A stretch of 64,000 bases of DNA from Chitinophagales bacterium (GTDB lineage Bacteria > Bacteroidota > Bacteroidia > Chitinophagales > UBA10324), in assembly GCA_025056305.1 (NCBI GenBank), contig JANWWJ010000031.1, positions 1 through 64,000 on the forward strand. The letters run 5' to 3'. Of this stretch, positions 31,521 to 42,672 are shown one piece after another; the stretch's first letter is position 1; every line of letters begins with the position of its first letter. Under the pieces are notes generated by a model, which had not been told where the DNA came from, did no database searches, and saw only the letters and a program-made list of their open reading frames with translations. Made by a program: the position numbers and the translations under genes.

Positions 31521-31530
31521 GCTTGCTAAC
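31517..31530. promoter_or_regulatory. Inverted repeat GTTAGC-TT-GCTAAC in divergent promoter
   Basis: A perfect 6-bp inverted repeat with a TT spacer overlaps the CNNM-type -7 box and lies between that gene and rpsA. It could be an operator for either gene; the binding protein is unknown. Confidence 0.3.
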
Positions 31531-31573
31531 GTGGGGCAGATTTTTGTTGATCCGATATTTTGCCGCCAAGCAT

Positions 31574-31581
31574 TACCTTTG
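31574..31581 (+). promoter_or_regulatory. Promoter -7 box TACCTTTG of rpsA
   Basis: This is an exact TAnnTTTG match 40 bp upstream of the rpsA TTG start. A TTG lies 24 bp further upstream as a weak -33 candidate. The leader between box and start carries the Shine-Dalgarno sequence. Confidence 0.55.
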
Positions 31582-31604
31582 CAGCCCTAAAAAAATTCAA
31601 GCAA

Positions 31605-31612
31605 AAAGGAGG
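31605..31612 (+). promoter_or_regulatory. Strong Shine-Dalgarno AAAGGAGG before rpsA
   Basis: AAAGGAGG ends 9 bp before the TTG start of rpsA at 31622, an ideal spacing. Genes of this phylum seldom carry such sites, so it stands out, and it decides the TTG start. Confidence 0.6.
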
Positions 31613-31621
31613 ATTTTAAAT

Positions 31622-33715
31622 TTGGAAGAAACAAAAAACGAACCCACCAGCTCTACGGCGGAAATTACCGCTCAGCCCACAACAGCACAACGGGAAGCTC
31701 AGCAATCAGACGACTTTGATTGGGAAAGTAAGAAGCTCGTGACCCGAAAATACAGCGAGGAAGAGCGAAAACGCTGGGAAGAGCTGTACGGCGAGAGCTT
31801 CGTGACGGTTCATGACAACGAAATTGTCAAAGGCACCGTTGTTTCAATCAGCGATTCCGATGTCGTGTTGAACATTGGCTTTAAGAGCGATGGCATGGTG
31901 CCCTTATCCGAGTTCCGCGACATGGAAAACCTCAAGGTAGGAGATGTGGTTGAAGTGATGGTCGTGGAAAAAGAAAATGTAAAAGGGCAACTTATTCTTT
32001 CGCGCAAGAACGCCAAACTCGAGCGGGCGTGGGAGCGGATCGTGGAAGCCCATAACAATGGGGAAGTAGTCACCGGTTTAATCACCAGCAAAACCAAGGG
32101 CGGTTTGATTGTGGACCTCTTTGGCATGGAAACCTTTTTGCCGGGTTCACAAATAGACATCAAACCCATCACCGATTACGACCAATTCCTGAACAAGTTG
32201 ATGGAGTTTAAAGTCGTAAAAATCAATCCGCAGATTAAGAATGCGGTCGTGTCGCACAAGGCCCTTATAGAAAGTGACCTGGAGCAGCAGCGGATGCAAA
32301 TTATTTCCAGGTTGGAACGTGGCCAGGTGCTGGAAGGGACCGTGAAAAACATCACCGATTTTGGTGCCTTCATCGACCTGGGCGGTGTAGATGGTTTACT
32401 TTATATAACGGACATTTCGTGGGGCCGCATCAGTCATCCTAGTGAAGTGCTGCAACTCAACCAGAAAATCAACGTCGTCGTTCTGGATTTTGACGATGAA
32501 AAGAAGCGCATCTCCCTTGGTCGAAAGCAATTAGAACCTCATCCATGGGATACGCTTAGCGATGAGTATCGAGTGGGCGTAAAAGTCAAGGGCAAAATCG
32601 TCAACATAGAGGATTATGGTGCTTTCTTGGAAGTAGTCCCCGGCGTTGAGGGATTGATTCATGTCTCTGAAATCTCATGGAGCAATACACCCATTAACGC
32701 CAAGGAGCATTTTAAGCTCGGGGATGAAGTGGAAGCCCTCATCATCCACTTGGACAGGGCCGAGCGTAAAATGTCGCTCTCGATCAAACAACTGACCCCT
32801 GATCCATGGGCTGATATCGAGAAAAAATACCCGGTAGGAACACGACTTACCGGAAAGGTACGCTCTATCGTCAATCATGGTGTATTTGTCACGCTGGAAG
32901 AAGGCATCACCGGCTATGTACACATCAGTGACTTGAGTTGGCTTAAACGCATTCAGCATCCCAATGAAGTCACCAAGGTGGGCGAAGATCTGGAAGTCGT
33001 TGTGCTGGAGATCAACAAAGAAGAGCGAAAAATCACCTTAGGCCACAAGCAGATCGAGGAAGATCCATGGGATACGTTTGAGACCATCTTCCCTGTGGGG
33101 TCAGAACACCAGGCCACGGTGATTAAAAAAGAAGACAAATGGGCGACCGTGTTGCTGCCTTACGGCATGGAAGCTGTTTGTCCGATTAAACATTTGAAAA
33201 AATCTAATGGCAAACTTGCCGAAGTTGACGAGACTCTTACATTCAAAGTCATCGAGTTTGAACGGGCGCAACGTCGGATTACCGTGTCACACCTTCGCTA
33301 TTGGCAGGATTTGAAAGAAGCCGAAAAACAAGCCCAGAAAGAAAAGCAGCGCGATGAACGGAAGCAGCAGCGTCAGGAATTAAAGAAGCTAAGCAGTAAG
33401 GTGGAAAAGTCCACCTTGGGTGAACTGTCTGCTTTGAAGGAAATCAAGTTCAAGATCGAAACATCAGGCAAAGCCCAAAAAGAAACCAAAGAATCAAAGA
33501 AGGACCAAGGAGCCAAAGAGGCTTTGGAAACCGAGCAATCCAAGGATAAAAAGAAAACAGAGCCCCCAGCCATGGAAGCTTCGGCTGGGGCAGCCGGTCC
33601 GTCAGCCGAAAATCCACCGGCCGCTGATACAACCCCGACTTCGGAACATTCTGATCAGACATCTGAGGCTCCGCCGCCTTCAGCCGAAGAGCAGCAACCA
33701 CCGCCGCAGCAATAA
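31622..33715 (+). CDS. rpsA: 30S ribosomal protein S1
   Basis: The protein is about 697 residues with six S1 RNA-binding domains after a short acidic N-terminus; domain starts include GTVVSISDSDVVL, GLITSKTKGGLIVD, GTVKNITDFGAFID, GKIVNIEDYGAFLE, GKVRSIVNHGVFVT and ATVIKKEDKWATV. A lysine- and proline-rich acidic tail follows from about residue 590. S1 helps unfold and load mRNA. The TTG at 31622 is chosen because it directly follows a perfect Shine-Dalgarno and -7 box; the frame stays open to 31523, but that part would precede the promoter. Confidence 0.95.
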   Translation: MEETKNEPTSSTAEITAQPTTAQREAQQSDDFDWESKKLVTRKYSEEERKRWEELYGESFVTVHDNEIVKGTVVSISDSDVVLNIGFKSDGMVPLSEFRDMENLKVGDVVEVMVVEKENVKGQLILSRKNAKLERAWERIVEAHNNGEVVTGLITSKTKGGLIVDLFGMETFLPGSQIDIKPITDYDQFLNKLMEFKVVKINPQIKNAVVSHKALIESDLEQQRMQIISRLERGQVLEGTVKNITDFGAFIDLGGVDGLLYITDISWGRISHPSEVLQLNQKINVVVLDFDDEKKRISLGRKQLEPHPWDTLSDEYRVGVKVKGKIVNIEDYGAFLEVVPGVEGLIHVSEISWSNTPINAKEHFKLGDEVEALIIHLDRAERKMSLSIKQLTPDPWADIEKKYPVGTRLTGKVRSIVNHGVFVTLEEGITGYVHISDLSWLKRIQHPNEVTKVGEDLEVVVLEINKEERKITLGHKQIEEDPWDTFETIFPVGSEHQATVIKKEDKWATVLLPYGMEAVCPIKHLKKSNGKLAEVDETLTFKVIEFERAQRRITVSHLRYWQDLKEAEKQAQKEKQRDERKQQRQELKKLSSKVEKSTLGELSALKEIKFKIETSGKAQKETKESKKDQGAKEALETEQSKDKKKTEPPAMEASAGAAGPSAENPPAADTTPTSEHSDQTSEAPPPSAEEQQPPPQQ

Positions 33716-35102: not shown

Positions 35103-37760
35103 ATGCTCCGTGTAGGCATCTTATTTGGGGGAAGCAGCCGCGAGCGGGAGGTGTCGTTTGCCGGTGGGCGCACGGTTTACGATTTGCTGGATAAATCACT
35201 GTTTGAGCCCATTCCGCTGTTTCTTGACTCTTTGGGCAACCTGGTAGAGTTGCATTGGACTTATCTGTACAAAGGCACGATCCGCGACTTTTATCCTCCG
35301 GCCTCGTATCAGGGGGGGACAGATTATCCGTGGCAGATCTATATTGAATCGCTGAGCGAGCTTCAGGCCGACGAGCGGCTGCGTCTTCTGTCGCAGATAG
35401 GCCGGCCTCTGCGGTGGGATGAACTCCCCCAACGTGTGGACCTTGTTTTTCTGGCCCTCCACGGCACCGATGGTGAAGATGGCAGCGTGCAAGGCATGTT
35501 GGAATTGCTTCGAATTCCCTATACCGGGTCGGGCATTTTGCCTTCAGCCATCGGGATGGACAAAGCCTTTCAGAAAAAAATCATGAAAGAAGCCGGCCTG
35601 CAGGTGCCGCGCAGTGTTGTTCTTCATCGGCAGGAATGGCTCAACGGGAATCGCCGCCGCTGCTATGAGCACGTTCGCCGCGCGGTGGGTTTTCCTTTAG
35701 TGATACGCCCAGCTAACCAGGGCTCCAGTATAGGTGTGACTTCCCTGCATGAAGACAGCTACAGCCAGTTCTGTGCTGCCGTCGATAGGGCTTTTTTCAC
35801 CCATCGCCTAACCGCACAACAATGGAATAAGCTGAGCGAGCAGCAGGCAGCCGCATGGGTGCAGCAGCTCTGTGAAATCAAAGAAGGCATCGGATTGCCC
35901 ATACGTATAGGTGAAAAAATCATTTATCATCCAGAGACGCTGTTTCGCTTCTTAAGCGATCATTTTCGTCGGAGCAAACAACCGCTGTGGCTGTACAGCC
36001 TCATGGAAGAAAAGCAGGTTTTGGCCGAGGAATTCATAGAGGGCACAGAATTCAGTTGTATCGTCATTCGCAACGAGGACGGCCGTCCTTTTGCCCTTCC
36101 TCCCACCGAAATTCGAAAAGCCTCCTCGGTATTTGACTACCGCTCTAAGTATTTGGCGGGTATGTCGCGCAAGATCACCCCGATGGAGCTTTCCGACCGA
36201 AAAGTCGAACAAGTCAGGCAGGCCTGTGAGCGCCTGTTTTCCTTTTTCGATTTCCATGTGTATGCTCGTATAGATGGCTTTGTTCGCCGGCGGGATGGCG
36301 CCATTTTGCTCAACGATCCAAACACCACATCGGGCATGATGCCCTCTTCGTTTTTCTTCCATCAGGCAGCAGAAATTGGTCTTGACCCCACGCAGTTTTT
36401 AACCTATGTGGTGCGCACCTCTTTATGGGAACGCTTGCAAAGTGGAAAATACAGCCATGTGCGGCCCATGTTGAAACAACTGGATGAAGTTATCGCCCGC
36501 CGGCAGCAACAGCAGCAACAAAAGGTTCGTGTTGCCGTGATTTTGGGGGGATATTCCTCAGAGCGCCATATTTCGGTCGAAAGTGGTCGAAATGTATATG
36601 AAAAACTGGCATCCTCAACACAATATCGCCCGCTGCCTGTGTTTTTGCTGGGCAATGCCCGCAGCTATAAGCTCTATCAAATACCCATAAATCTGTTGTT
36701 AAAAGATAATGCTGACGACATAGCTGAACACATCCTTCATCGTCGGCGACGGGCCATGCTGACAGTCCTTTGCCGGCAGGCTGCAGCTTTAAGGCGTCGA
36801 TACGGAAGCTCAACCTACCTGTTCGAACCCCGGCGACTCACCTGGGCGCAGTTGCGGCAAATGTGTGATAAGGTTTTTATAGCGCTGCATGGGCGCCCGG
36901 GGGAAGATGGTACGTTGCAACAGGCGCTGGAACGTATTGGCCTGCCTTACAATGGTTCGGGGCCTGAGTCCTCGCAGCTAACCATCGATAAATATGCCAC
37001 CAACGAACTGCTGGCGCGTCATGGCCTGCGGGTACCCCGACATCAGTTGTTTTATCGCAAGCAGTGGCGGCAGCATCCACGCCGGTTTTTTCAGTTAATT
37101 GAGGAGCAATTCTCCTATCCATTTATTTGTAAGCCGGTCGATGATGGATGCAGTGCTGCCGTAAAAAAAATTGAGCAGCGAAGCCAGCTCGAGGCCTATT
37201 GCAAGCTCCTCTTTCGCAACAGTGCCACCGTTCCCAAAGGACCTGGCTCGGTGTTAGGCCTCCAGCCCAGTGAAGAGTTTCCCGCCAAAGACCAAATGCT
37301 GGTCGAAGAGCTGATAACCCGCGGAAGTGCTGTTCGGTTTTTGGAAATCACCGGAGGCATGCTCATTCACCGCACGGCAAACGGCCAACTCCGCTACGAG
37401 GTTTTTGAGCCGAGTGAAGTGCTGGCTAGCGATCAGATTTTGTCGTTGGAAGAGAAATTCCTGGCAGGGGAGGGGCAAAACATTACGCCGGCTCGATTTG
37501 CGGAAGACCCTGCCGAAAACGAGCGCATCACCAAACAGGTTAAGGCAGAACTCGAAAAAGCCGCCCGTGTTGCCAACGTCAGGGGCTACTGCCGTATCGA
37601 TGCCTTCGTACGCATTTATGAAAAGGGTACGGTGGAAACCATCATCTTAGAAATCAACTCCCTGCCAGGTATGACCCCGGCAACATGTTTGTTCCATCAA
37701 GCAGCCTTACACCATTACCGCCCCTTGGATCTCATTGATCAAATCCTGAAAAACGCATAA
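35103..37760 (+). CDS. Fused double D-alanine--D-alanine ligase
   Basis: The 885-residue protein contains two complete Ddl ATP-grasp units joined by a Gln-rich linker (about 467-474). Half 1 (1-465) has GGSSREREVSFAGG, LALHGTDGEDG, TGSGILPSAIGMDK, EEFIEGTEF, YRSKYL and NDPNTTSGM. Half 2 (475-885) has GGYSSERHISVESG, IALHGRPGEDGT, NGSGPESSQLTIDK, and ILEINSLPGMTP. The usual ATP-site Lys is Arg in half 1 (R202) but Lys in half 2 (K677). The Tyr of the YxxKYL loop is present in half 1 (Y346) but is Leu in half 2 (LSLEEKFL). Each half has therefore diverged. It likely makes D-Ala-D-Ala for peptidoglycan; which half is active is unclear. A PASTA protein follows after 11 bp. Confidence 0.92.
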   Translation: MLRVGILFGGSSREREVSFAGGRTVYDLLDKSLFEPIPLFLDSLGNLVELHWTYLYKGTIRDFYPPASYQGGTDYPWQIYIESLSELQADERLRLLSQIGRPLRWDELPQRVDLVFLALHGTDGEDGSVQGMLELLRIPYTGSGILPSAIGMDKAFQKKIMKEAGLQVPRSVVLHRQEWLNGNRRRCYEHVRRAVGFPLVIRPANQGSSIGVTSLHEDSYSQFCAAVDRAFFTHRLTAQQWNKLSEQQAAAWVQQLCEIKEGIGLPIRIGEKIIYHPETLFRFLSDHFRRSKQPLWLYSLMEEKQVLAEEFIEGTEFSCIVIRNEDGRPFALPPTEIRKASSVFDYRSKYLAGMSRKITPMELSDRKVEQVRQACERLFSFFDFHVYARIDGFVRRRDGAILLNDPNTTSGMMPSSFFFHQAAEIGLDPTQFLTYVVRTSLWERLQSGKYSHVRPMLKQLDEVIARRQQQQQQKVRVAVILGGYSSERHISVESGRNVYEKLASSTQYRPLPVFLLGNARSYKLYQIPINLLLKDNADDIAEHILHRRRRAMLTVLCRQAAALRRRYGSSTYLFEPRRLTWAQLRQMCDKVFIALHGRPGEDGTLQQALERIGLPYNGSGPESSQLTIDKYATNELLARHGLRVPRHQLFYRKQWRQHPRRFFQLIEEQFSYPFICKPVDDGCSAAVKKIEQRSQLEAYCKLLFRNSATVPKGPGSVLGLQPSEEFPAKDQMLVEELITRGSAVRFLEITGGMLIHRTANGQLRYEVFEPSEVLASDQILSLEEKFLAGEGQNITPARFAEDPAENERITKQVKAELEKAARVANVRGYCRIDAFVRIYEKGTVETIILEINSLPGMTPATCLFHQAALHHYRPLDLIDQILKNA

Positions 37761-37771
37761 GGTTTTTCTTC

Positions 37772-38569
37772 ATGTCAGCAAAAGAGACCACGGGCAAAAA
37801 GATTTGGATCCTGATAGGCCGGCATCTGGGATTGGTAGTCGTTTTCTATCTGGGATTTATCGGCTTGTTTGCTCTGAGTGTACGCTGGTACACGCATCAC
37901 GGCGAACAAATAGACGTACCCAACCTTAAGGGGATGAGCATTCAGCAAGCAGCCTTGACGTTGCACCAGCGAGGGTTGCAGGCAGTGATTTCCGACTCTA
38001 CCTATCAAGAAGATGCTTCACCGCTGACCGTCCTGGATCAAGTGCCGGCAGCCGGATCTTTCGTAAAAAAGGATCGAAAAATTTATTTAACGATTAATTC
38101 TGTAATTCCACCACAGGTTGTCTTGCCCGACCTGAAAGATGTTTCCCTAAAGCAGGCGGCGGCCATTTTACAGAGTTACGGACTGAAGCCCGGACAGTTG
38201 ATTTACCGCCCCGACTTAGCCAAAGATGTTGTATTAGAAATGCGTTTGGGTGGGAAAACCGTACAGGCTGGCACGCAGGTCAGCAAAGGTTCGCGTATTG
38301 ACCTTGTGTTGGGTGATGGCTTGGGAGCTACTGAAGTGCCCGTTCCAGATCTTGTTGGCTTATCGTTGCGCGAAGCTCGTTTTGTGTTGGAAGGTACGGG
38401 CTTGCATTTGGGAGCTGTGGTAGCAGATCAGAGCGTGGTCGGCGATACCTTGGATGCTATTGTGTACAAACAACTGCCAGCACCCACCCCTGAAGCCATG
38501 ATGCATTTGGGCGAGGGCGTTGACGTATTCGTAACTTCACCGCGCAACTATGAACAAGACGAAGAGTGA
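37772..38569 (+). CDS. PASTA-domain membrane protein
   Basis: The 265-residue protein has one N-terminal membrane helix (about 14-35: WILIGRHLGLVVVFYLGFIG) and three PASTA domains (about 47-112 VPNLKGMSIQQAALTLHQRG, 117-183 LPDLKDVSLKQAAAILQSYG, 189-257 VPDLVGLSLREARFVLEGTG) facing the periplasm. PASTA domains sense peptidoglycan or unlinked muropeptides. There is no kinase domain. Its position right after a Ddl gene supports a peptidoglycan role and resembles an arrangement common in Bacteroidota. It overlaps the next gene by 20 bp. Confidence 0.9.
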   Translation: MSAKETTGKKIWILIGRHLGLVVVFYLGFIGLFALSVRWYTHHGEQIDVPNLKGMSIQQAALTLHQRGLQAVISDSTYQEDASPLTVLDQVPAAGSFVKKDRKIYLTINSVIPPQVVLPDLKDVSLKQAAAILQSYGLKPGQLIYRPDLAKDVVLEMRLGGKTVQAGTQVSKGSRIDLVLGDGLGATEVPVPDLVGLSLREARFVLEGTGLHLGAVVADQSVVGDTLDAIVYKQLPAPTPEAMMHLGEGVDVFVTSPRNYEQDEE

Positions 38570-40411: not shown

Positions 40412-40732
40412 ATGGATGAAATAACTGCTGAGGAACTCAGGACCTTGCTGGATGCCGGCCATCCGCTTCATTTTATTGATGTGCGGGAGCCCTGGGAGTA
40501 TGAGGAATTCAATTTAGGAGCGAAGAACATACCCCTTCATGAATTGGCTGGCATGCTGCCGTCGATGCCTTTTGAAAAAGATAAGCTCATTGTTGTTCAT
40601 TGCCAGCGGGGGCAGCGAGGGCAACAGGCAGTTGCCTTACTTAAGCAGGTCGGCTACGTGCAGGTGCGGAACCTTAGGGGTGGCATTGAGGCCTGGACGA
40701 GTTGTTACGGCAGGCATACCCCTGCACGTTAG
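40412..40732 (+). CDS. Rhodanese-like sulfurtransferase
   Basis: The 106-residue single rhodanese domain has the typical FIDVREPWEYEEFNLGAKNI and a candidate active-site Cys in VVHCQRGQRG, followed by LRGGIEAW. It can carry persulfide sulfur or act in a redox role; the partner is unknown. It is 2 bp after the T9SS cargo gene and is the last gene before a new promoter at 40755. Confidence 0.93.
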   Translation: MDEITAEELRTLLDAGHPLHFIDVREPWEYEEFNLGAKNIPLHELAGMLPSMPFEKDKLIVVHCQRGQRGQQAVALLKQVGYVQVRNLRGGIEAWTSCYGRHTPAR

Positions 40733-40767: not shown

Positions 40768-42672
40768 ATGAAAGTCGGCAGTCGCTTTCTGGTGGCAGCG
40801 CTCACGACTTTTTTGTTGTTTGGTTCGTGGGCCATAACCCACTGTGGCAAGCAACCACACCAAAGGCCTTATCGCAATCTAAGTGACACGGCCTACTACG
40901 TGGGCATGCAGGCCTGTCGCGGTTGCCATGAAGATATTTATCAAACGTTTATACGTACCGGAATGGGACAGTCGTGGGGGGCAGCCACTCCCAGCAAATC
41001 GGCTGCCCGACTGACCGGTCATGAAGCCGTGTATGATTCGTTCAAAAATTTCTGGTACAGACCGTTTTGGCTGGGAGATCGCATGTATATCGAAGAATAT
41101 CGCCTCAGGGGGACTGATACGTTATATCGGCGCCGTGAGCAGGTCACATTTATCGTAGGCAGCGGCCAACATACCAACTCACACCTGTGGTGGCATCAAG
41201 GATACCTCTGTCAGGCCCCTATTACCTATTACACCCAAAAAGGTGTTTGGGATTTGGCTCCTGGCTTTGAGGGCGGCCGAAACAGCCGCTGGCAGCGCGC
41301 CATCAACATGGAATGCATGACCTGTCACAACATGTATCCGCAGGCCAGGGTAGGAGCGGAAAATGCTTACCTCAGTATTGGCACCGGCATTGAATGCGAG
41401 CGATGCCATGGCCCAGGCAGTATTCATGTAGCCGAAAAACTTAAAGGACTACGCGCAGATACATTGAAGGCTCCGGACTATTCTATTGTCAATCCCCGCC
41501 GTTTGCCGAGGGAACTTCAAATGCAGGTATGCATGCGCTGCCATTTGCAGGGCATAACCGTGCTGAAACCGGGTAAACGCTTTACAGACTTTAAACCGGG
41601 CATGTATCTGAATGAAGTCATGGAAGTCTTCATGCCCCGCTACGCTGGTGATCCACCCCGTTTCATCATGGCTTCTCATGTAGATCGCCTAAAACAAAGC
41701 CGCTGTTACCAGCAATCGCAAATGACCTGCTTGACCTGTCATAATCCTCATGTAAGTGTAACTGTTACGCCGAAAGAGCACTTCAACAACGCATGCAAAA
41801 GTTGTCACGGTGTAAAACACACGTGTACTTTGCCGCTGATGCAACGCCAAGCCGTCGGTGATCACTGTTATTCCTGTCACATGCCGGTTTCCGAAACGCT
41901 GGATATTCCGCATGTCACCGTTCACGATCATCGCATCCAGGTGCCCCAGGCCCGAAAGGAAAAAGAACAAGTTGCACAGTTTTTACGGTTGGAATGCCTG
42001 ACGAGTCAAAATCCATCCCCGCTGTTGATGGCTCAAGGTTACCTGCAGGCATACGAGGCCTTTGAACAAAAACCCTTTTTGCTGGATTCGGCTGCTTACT
42101 ATCTGAGTCGAGTTAAAAAGAAAGATCAACATTATTTCGAAACAGGCGTACGGTTGGCATTTCTGCGTCAGCAATTTGATCAGGTCCTTGACTATGCGGC
42201 TCGTCTGGACCCGCACACCATTTCTGCCTGGACTGCCTATCGCATAGGTGAATCTTATTATCAAAAGAAAAACTATGAACAGGCCTCTGCCTTTTTCGGC
42301 AGAGCTGTGCTTCACGATTCTTTGGATGTGCATTTTCTGAATAAGTACGGCAGCAGCCTGATGGCACAGCAGCGCTTGGGAGAAGCCGAACAAGTCTTTA
42401 GGCGAATAGTGGCCCTGTATGATCGCTATGCTCCGGGCTGGAACAACCTGGGGTACGTGTGGCTGCAACGAAACAATCATGCTCAAGCCCGGGAGTGCTT
42501 TCGACGCGCTTTAGAGCTCGATCCTGACTATGAACAGGCGTGGCTGAATCTGGCCGCCCTCGAGTGGACTTTAGGAGACCGGCAAGCGGCACGCCAGCAT
42601 CTGCAGCAGGTGTTAAGGCTTAACCCGCATAATGCCCAGGCATTGGCCGCCATGCGGCAGATCGGTGGCTGA
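40768..42672 (+). CDS. Seven-heme cytochrome c with TPR repeats
   Basis: The 634-residue protein has a signal peptide and a poor lipobox-like Cys (THC at residue 26). Seven CxxCH heme motifs start at C50, C183, C210, C255, C321, C343 and C367, and the C-terminal third (about 465-634) carries TPRs (AWTAYRIGESYYQKKNYEQA, AWLNLAALEWTLGDRQ). It is presumably periplasmic or on the outer-membrane face and takes part in electron transfer; a role like nitrite or tetrathionate-type multiheme reductases cannot be shown. mltG follows 17 bp later. Confidence 0.88.
   Translation: MKVGSRFLVAALTTFLLFGSWAITHCGKQPHQRPYRNLSDTAYYVGMQACRGCHEDIYQTFIRTGMGQSWGAATPSKSAARLTGHEAVYDSFKNFWYRPFWLGDRMYIEEYRLRGTDTLYRRREQVTFIVGSGQHTNSHLWWHQGYLCQAPITYYTQKGVWDLAPGFEGGRNSRWQRAINMECMTCHNMYPQARVGAENAYLSIGTGIECERCHGPGSIHVAEKLKGLRADTLKAPDYSIVNPRRLPRELQMQVCMRCHLQGITVLKPGKRFTDFKPGMYLNEVMEVFMPRYAGDPPRFIMASHVDRLKQSRCYQQSQMTCLTCHNPHVSVTVTPKEHFNNACKSCHGVKHTCTLPLMQRQAVGDHCYSCHMPVSETLDIPHVTVHDHRIQVPQARKEKEQVAQFLRLECLTSQNPSPLLMAQGYLQAYEAFEQKPFLLDSAAYYLSRVKKKDQHYFETGVRLAFLRQQFDQVLDYAARLDPHTISAWTAYRIGESYYQKKNYEQASAFFGRAVLHDSLDVHFLNKYGSSLMAQQRLGEAEQVFRRIVALYDRYAPGWNNLGYVWLQRNNHAQARECFRRALELDPDYEQAWLNLAALEWTLGDRQAARQHLQQVLRLNPHNAQALAAMRQIGG

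What the first reader, a model, noticed from the sequence alone, without database searches (positions are those of the whole stretch)
35103..37760. Double Ddl enzyme whose halves have lost different residues
One polypeptide carries two full D-Ala-D-Ala ligase units. The ATP-site Lys is Arg in half 1 (R202) but Lys in half 2 (K677). The Tyr of the YxxKYL loop is kept in half 1 (Y346) but is Leu in half 2. Ddl normally works as a dimer, so the fusion may be an obligate heterodimer in which one half is catalytic and the other regulatory, or the halves differ in substrate (for example another D-amino acid).
Basis: partly seen in the sequence, partly recalled or inferred. Interest (0 to 1): 0.6.

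Follow-up and report, generated by a model that had tools for sequence, protein, structure and literature searches.

The report
Asymmetric double D-alanine ligase in Bacteroidia
About half of the sampled species in a large bacterial class make an essential cell-wall building block with one enzyme that is two fused copies of the usual one, and the copies have fixed, different changes in their active sites, so they probably do different jobs.

Summary
ORF 35103-37760 (+) encodes 885 aa with two complete Ddl units. It is the only Ddl in a 99%-complete genome. The fusion is in 91 of 197 sampled Bacteroidia genomes and in none of about 148 genomes of other classes of the phylum.

R202 is not fixed: Lys and Arg swap at least 4 times. 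Across 130 intact fusions (91 clusters at 80% identity) the fixed changes, in E. coli DdlB numbering, are E270D in half 1 and S150C, Y216F and S281T in half 2. The ATP/metal set is intact in half 2; the substrate triad is intact in half 1. Both halves are equally constrained.

Two natural experiments help. Six genomes with an added stand-alone Ddl have wrecked signatures in the fusion. One complete genome keeps only half 1 plus a stub of half 2, so half 1 probably suffices for D-Ala-D-Ala synthesis.

Best reading: a housekeeping Ddl, with half 1 the ligase and half 2 a retained ATP-binding partner. A second, depsipeptide-type activity of half 2 is not excluded. A PASTA gene follows, and in one family it is fused on behind a membrane anchor. 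Activity was not tested. New variant of a known kind.

The parts
35103..37760 (+). tandem Ddl-Ddl gene, 885 aa, the genome's only D-Ala-D-Ala ligase
   Evidence: ORF; Pfam; the only PF01820 matches in G000; 15 of 16 genomes of its family have it
35103..36512 (+). half 1 (residues 1-470): substrate triad E14-S208-Y350 intact, E270->D (D405), K144->R (R202)
   Evidence: alignment to E. coli DdlA/DdlB; NCBIfam Ddl 226.6 bits against a cut-off of 243
35706..35708 (+). R202, equivalent of DdlB K144; Lys in the majority of the family
   Evidence: K 79, R 56; at least 4 switches
36147..36152 (+). K349-Y350, equivalents of DdlB K215-Y216 (dipeptide-type Tyr)
   Evidence: invariant in 135 of 135
36315..36317 (+). 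D405, equivalent of metal ligand E270 (motif LNDPNTTSG)
   Evidence: Asp in 135 of 135 fusions; Glu in 18 of 18 stand-alone Ddl of the order
36504..36521 (+). poly-Gln linker between the halves (Q468-Q473)
   Evidence: translation
36513..37757 (+). half 2 (residues 471-885): ATP/metal set intact (K630, K677, E735, E748, D833, E850, N852), substrate triad changed
   Evidence: NCBIfam Ddl 165.5 bits against a cut-off of 243
37149..37151 (+). C683, equivalent of DdlB S150
   Evidence: Cys in all 131 covered sequences
37458..37460 (+). F786, equivalent of DdlB Y216 (the dipeptide/depsipeptide switch position of lactic acid bacteria Ddl)
   Evidence: Phe in all 130 covered sequences; PMC5996685
37683..37685 (+). 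T861, equivalent of DdlB S281
   Evidence: Thr in all 130 covered sequences
37772..38569 (+). PASTA-domain membrane protein (one N-terminal hydrophobic segment, three PASTA), 11 bp downstream; fused to the C-terminus of the double Ddl in part of one family
   Evidence: Pfam PF03793; separate same-strand neighbour in 73 loci and fused in 19 locus entries

Best explanation
This is the cell's single housekeeping D-Ala-D-Ala ligase, made as a covalent pair of Ddl units. Shown by sequence: one fusion, two clades of halves, both halves equally conserved, and fixed complementary active-site changes. Inferred: half 1 makes D-Ala-D-Ala. It keeps Glu15, Ser150, Tyr216, Arg255 and Ser281, and tolerates Asp at the metal ligand E270 and either Lys or Arg at K144. 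Half 2 keeps a complete ATP/Mg2+ site but has a rewritten substrate-closing triad (Cys150, Phe216, Thr281). It most likely acts as an ATP-binding partner that supports or regulates half 1 in an intramolecular pseudo-dimer, rather than as an ordinary second D-Ala-D-Ala ligase. The adjacent PASTA membrane protein, fused on in one family, probably ties the enzyme to sites of wall synthesis.
For: Only Ddl in the genome (other PF07478 hits include AccC-, CarB- and PurK-like proteins). A MurF-alanine racemase fusion is present, so D-Ala supply and use are in place. Invariant two-part signature in 130 fusions, 91 clusters at 80% identity; mean pairwise identity 53% (half 1) and 55% (half 2); 75 and 73 invariant columns. 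Each half forms one clade, support 99 and 100. All six genomes with a fusion plus a separate Ddl have destroyed signatures, as expected if the fusion is the functional Ddl elsewhere. G660 (7.2 Mb, 100% complete) has one PF01820 match in all: half 1, with D at E270, plus a stub of half 2's N-domain. Fold model pLDDT 87, pTM 0.87; the best PDB matches are all Ddl.
Against: Half 1 lacks the metal-ligand Glu; Glu275 and Lys148 of B. pseudomallei Ddl (= E270, K144) are conserved in 98-100% of Ddl sequences (PMC6899670). The half-1-only case is a single genome whose half 1 also regained the canonical Pro275 and Leu282. Half 2's changes are chemically mild, and the Y216F protein of E. coli still binds ADP and a phosphinate intermediate analogue (PDB 1IOW), so half 2 may be active. 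The relative placement of the halves was not inspected. No assay.
Confidence: 0.55

Rival explanations
1. Both halves are ligases with different products. Half 1 (Tyr216) makes D-Ala-D-Ala; half 2 (Phe216, Thr281, Cys/Ala at 282) joins D-Ala to a hydroxy acid such as D-lactate or to another D-amino acid.
For: In lactic acid bacteria the single Phe/Tyr choice at this position decides depsipeptide or dipeptide activity (PMC5996685). Half 2 has an intact ATP/metal set and is as conserved as half 1.
Against: S150C and S281T do not occur in the 18 stand-alone Ddl examined and are not known to me from D-Lac ligases. Half 2 scores 78.3 bits against a cut-off of 550 for the D-Ala-D-Lac model. No VanX-type M15 peptidase in the genome. 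Genome G660 lives without half 2.
Confidence: 0.25
2. [quoted passage not shown]
For: Half 2 has the full canonical ATP/Mg2+ set (K97, K144, E270); half 1 has E270D and often K144R.
Against: G660 keeps half 1 and lost half 2. Half 1 scores higher on every leading Ddl model listed (226.6 against 165.5 bits on the best). K144 can be Lys or Arg in half 1 without other change. From general knowledge, carbamoyl phosphate synthetase, an active ATP-grasp enzyme, uses Arg at the equivalent position.
Confidence: 0.1
3. The two sites do the same ordinary reaction; the substitutions are harmless drift fixed by descent after an ancient duplication and fusion.
For: All substitutions are conservative (E to D, S to C, Y to F, S to T), and one origin explains their sharing.
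Against: Drift would not hold exactly these residues constant in 130 proteins down to 41% identity, while K144 varies and the signatures collapse once a separate Ddl is present.
Confidence: 0.1

Closest known systems
Bacterial D-Ala-D-Ala ligase (DdlA/DdlB; Pfam PF01820 + PF07478)
   Same: Each half has the full domain set and fold; half 1 has the complete substrate triad; genome role as the only Ddl
   Different: Two units in one chain; E270D in half 1; S150C/Y216F/S281T in half 2; long inserts; neither half alone reaches the NCBIfam Ddl cut-off
Plant DDL (Arabidopsis At-DDL, Physcomitrella)
   Same: Also a fusion of two DDL units, throughout the plant lineage (PMC9954125); moss Ddl is closest in sequence to the Fibrobacteres-Chlorobi-Bacteroidetes group (PMC9434261)
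   Different: Whether it shares this fusion's origin or residues could not be tested: no plant sequences in these tools
D-Ala-D-Lac ligases with Phe at the switch position (Leuconostoc Ddl F261, L. reuteri F258)
   Same: Half 2 has Lys-Phe (K785-F786) at the same position
   Different: Half 2 also has S150C and S281T; far below the D-Lac model cut-offs; sits in a housekeeping fusion, not a resistance cluster
Carbamoyl phosphate synthetase large subunit (general knowledge)
   Same: Two fused, diverged ATP-grasp units in one chain
   Different: Different reaction; both of its halves are known to be catalytic

Membership tests
[quoted passage not shown]
   in each half
[quoted passage not shown]
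   whole protein 385.9 against 243; half 1 226.6, half 2 165.5, both below it
[quoted passage not shown]
   half 1 met; half 2 not met (S150C, Y216F, S281T)
[quoted passage not shown]
   half 2 met; half 1 E270D in all, K144R in some
[quoted passage not shown]
   AlphaFold model pLDDT 87.2, pTM 0.87; Foldseek top hits all Ddl
[quoted passage not shown]
   needs an enzyme assay; supported only by being the sole Ddl
D-Ala-D-Lac (depsipeptide) ligase, for half 2 | Phe in place of the catalytic Tyr | tested here: met
   F786; rule from PMC5996685
D-Ala-D-Lac (depsipeptide) ligase, for half 2 | score above the D-Ala-D-Lac ligase model | tested here: not met
   78.3 bits against a cut-off of 550
Plant tandem DDL | two DDL units in one chain | tested here: met
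   PMC9954125
Plant tandem DDL | common ancestry and the same asymmetric residues | not testable with these tools
   no eukaryotic sequences held

The most novel reading that the evidence does not exclude
One chain carries two differently tuned ligase sites: a Tyr-type dipeptide site (half 1) and a Phe-type site (half 2) that makes a depsipeptide or acts as a nucleotide or substrate sensor controlling half 1. In one family this pair is anchored to the membrane and to PASTA domains outside, so that wall precursor supply responds to the state of the wall. The tandem DDL of land plants may descend from this bacterial fusion.
Probability: 0.2. Interest if true: 0.85.

Novelty: new variant of a known kind. 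Interest (0 to 1): 0.55.

Why it matters
Ddl is an essential enzyme, the target of D-cycloserine and the root of vancomycin susceptibility. In roughly half of sampled Bacteroidia genomes the only Ddl is this two-site protein, and I found no paper in the library that describes it. The fixed complementary substitutions make a clean test of how a duplicated ATP-grasp enzyme splits its work, of what the Tyr/Phe switch does in a housekeeping setting, and of where the plant tandem DDL came from.

Tried and rejected
K144R as the key loss: rejected, it varies. Y346/L782 as the catalytic Tyr: rejected, it aligns with DdlB Y212. A hidden stand-alone Ddl in the genome: rejected; other ATP-grasp hits looked at are AccC-, CarB- and PurK-like. 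Sequencing or assembly artefact: rejected, the fusion is shared by hundreds of genomes. A van-type resistance cluster: no VanX-type M15 peptidase and a housekeeping setting. A fusion outside Bacteroidia: two long frames (L213, L214) turned out to be single Ddl units in GC-rich read-through frames. A fusion on plasmids: only ordinary van and Ddl genes were among the listed records. The first single-sequence scan of genome contigs found nothing because of poor patterns; the alignment scan worked. A FemAB search found no match and bore on nothing here.

Full report
WHAT IS THERE. ORF 35103-37760 on the + strand encodes 885 residues. Pfam finds the Ddl N-terminal domain twice and the C-terminal domain in four stretches. 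The halves meet at a poly-Gln linker (Q468-Q473). A phmmer search of the PDB and a Foldseek search with an AlphaFold model (36 sequences, mean pLDDT 87.2, pTM 0.87) return Ddl structures. The two low-confidence stretches of the model, 342-352 and 774-793, are the two omega loops.

WHICH RESIDUES REALLY DIFFER. I aligned the halves with E. coli DdlA and DdlB. The remaining departures were not noticed: D405 for E270 in half 1; C683 for S150 and T861 for S281 in half 2. Over the family K144 in half 1 is Lys in 79 and Arg in 56 sequences, with at least four switches on the tree, so it is not the defining feature. The other four changes are invariant wherever the column is covered. In 130 intact fusions (122 clusters at 95% identity, 91 at 80%, 29 at 60%; 41-100% identity to the window protein) the 15-residue signatures are EHK[K/R]SEEKYRDDNGS and EHKKCEEKFRDENGT. 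The halves are equally conserved (53% and 55% mean pairwise identity over 91 representatives; 75 and 73 invariant columns), so neither is a decaying relic. In stand-alone Ddl of the same order these four positions are canonical in 18 of 18.

DISTRIBUTION. The window's genome has no other PF01820 protein; its other PF07478 matches include AccC-, CarB- and PurK-like proteins. 15 of 16 genomes of its family have the fusion. In 249 genomes of the order (my count from the table) about 62 have exactly two N-domains and, where inspected, these are the fusion; about 179 have a single stand-alone Ddl; six have a fusion plus a stand-alone; two have none. In the class, 91 of 197 genomes have the fusion (my count), and all 54 of those re-checked have no second Ddl. 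About 148 genomes of other classes of the phylum have no fusion. Named carriers include Pontibacter, Hymenobacter, Rufibacter, Aureispira and Sediminibacterium. In a tree of 88 rows each half is one clade (support 99 and 100), so the fusion most likely arose once; the order of the duplication and the root cannot be read from it.

NATURAL EXPERIMENT 1. Six genomes of one family, in four genera (G196, G182, G164, G288, G186, G264), have a separate stand-alone Ddl and a fusion whose signatures are wrecked. On the tree the placed degenerate copies nest among intact ones, next to L040, which is in the same genus as the degenerate L058. These are not six independent events, perhaps two to four. They fit a simple rule: the fusion keeps its two sites only while it is the cell's only Ddl.

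NATURAL EXPERIMENT 2. G660 (7.2 Mb, 100% complete, 0% contamination by the tool's figures) has one PF01820 match in all. Its 561-residue ORF (L215) is a full half 1, 40.5% identical to the window's half 1, with Asp still at E270, followed by a stub of half 2's N-domain; the rest of half 2 is gone and nothing downstream matches it. Half 1 there has the canonical Pro275 and Leu282 (LLHDPNTLPGMSPTSL). The simplest reading is that half 1 suffices as a ligase even with Asp at the metal site. This is one genome.

CONTEXT. Eleven bases downstream is a membrane protein with three PASTA domains (37772-38569). The same neighbour follows, on the same strand and close by, in 73 loci, and is fused to the C-terminus of the double Ddl in 19 locus entries, all from family f18 and including the degenerate ones. 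PASTA genes also lie near some stand-alone Ddl genes (L072, L077-L079), so the neighbourhood predates or is independent of the fusion. Elsewhere in the genome MurF is fused to alanine racemase.

HOW IT PROBABLY WORKS. Shown: sole Ddl, one clade per half, two constrained and different sites. Inferred with fair support: half 1 makes D-Ala-D-Ala. Inferred with weak support: half 2 binds ATP and supports or regulates half 1 in an intramolecular pair. The Phe at position 216 in half 2 is the residue that turns lactic acid bacterial Ddl into a depsipeptide ligase (PMC5996685), so a second activity is a real alternative; the accompanying S150C and S281T and the existence of G660 speak against it being essential. 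Conservation of E270 and K144 equivalents in 98-100% of Ddl (PMC6899670) is the main reason for doubt about half 1.

WHAT IS KNOWN. NCBI models would call the protein a D-Ala-D-Ala ligase from the summed score, while neither half alone reaches the cut-off. Plants have a two-unit DDL (PMC9954125), and moss Ddl is closest to the FCB group (PMC9434261); whether it comes from this fusion could not be tested. Nine literature searches found no description of the bacterial fusion, but most subscription papers are not in the library.

VERDICT. It is a new variant of a known enzyme kind, not a new kind.

Noticed in passing
37772-38569 (+), and L040, L049, L052-L060: The PASTA membrane protein behind the Ddl gene is fused to the double Ddl in one family, giving cytoplasmic Ddl-Ddl, one membrane segment and outer PASTA domains in one chain.
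   Followed up: partly
L058, L059, L060, L061, L203, L204: Degenerate Ddl-Ddl-PASTA proteins without a full set of catalytic residues are kept in genomes that have a separate Ddl, hinting at a non-enzymatic role such as a wall-sensing scaffold.
   Followed up: partly
L215:978-2648: A complete genome (G660) whose only Ddl is half 1 of the fusion plus a stub of half 2.
   Followed up: yes
G000:C43 (L211:379-3063, - strand): MurF fused to alanine racemase in the window's own genome, 895-aa frame.
   Followed up: partly
L216 (G457): A fusion reading frame that breaks near residue 835 in half 2 (frameshift in the gene or an assembly error).
   Followed up: no
31523-33715 (+): Large protein with six S1 RNA-binding domains (ribosomal protein S1-like); the listed frame opens at a TTG codon.
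   Followed up: no
40768-42672 (+): Multihaem cytochrome-like protein with C-terminal TPR repeats, following a rhodanese-like ORF (40412-40732).
   Followed up: no
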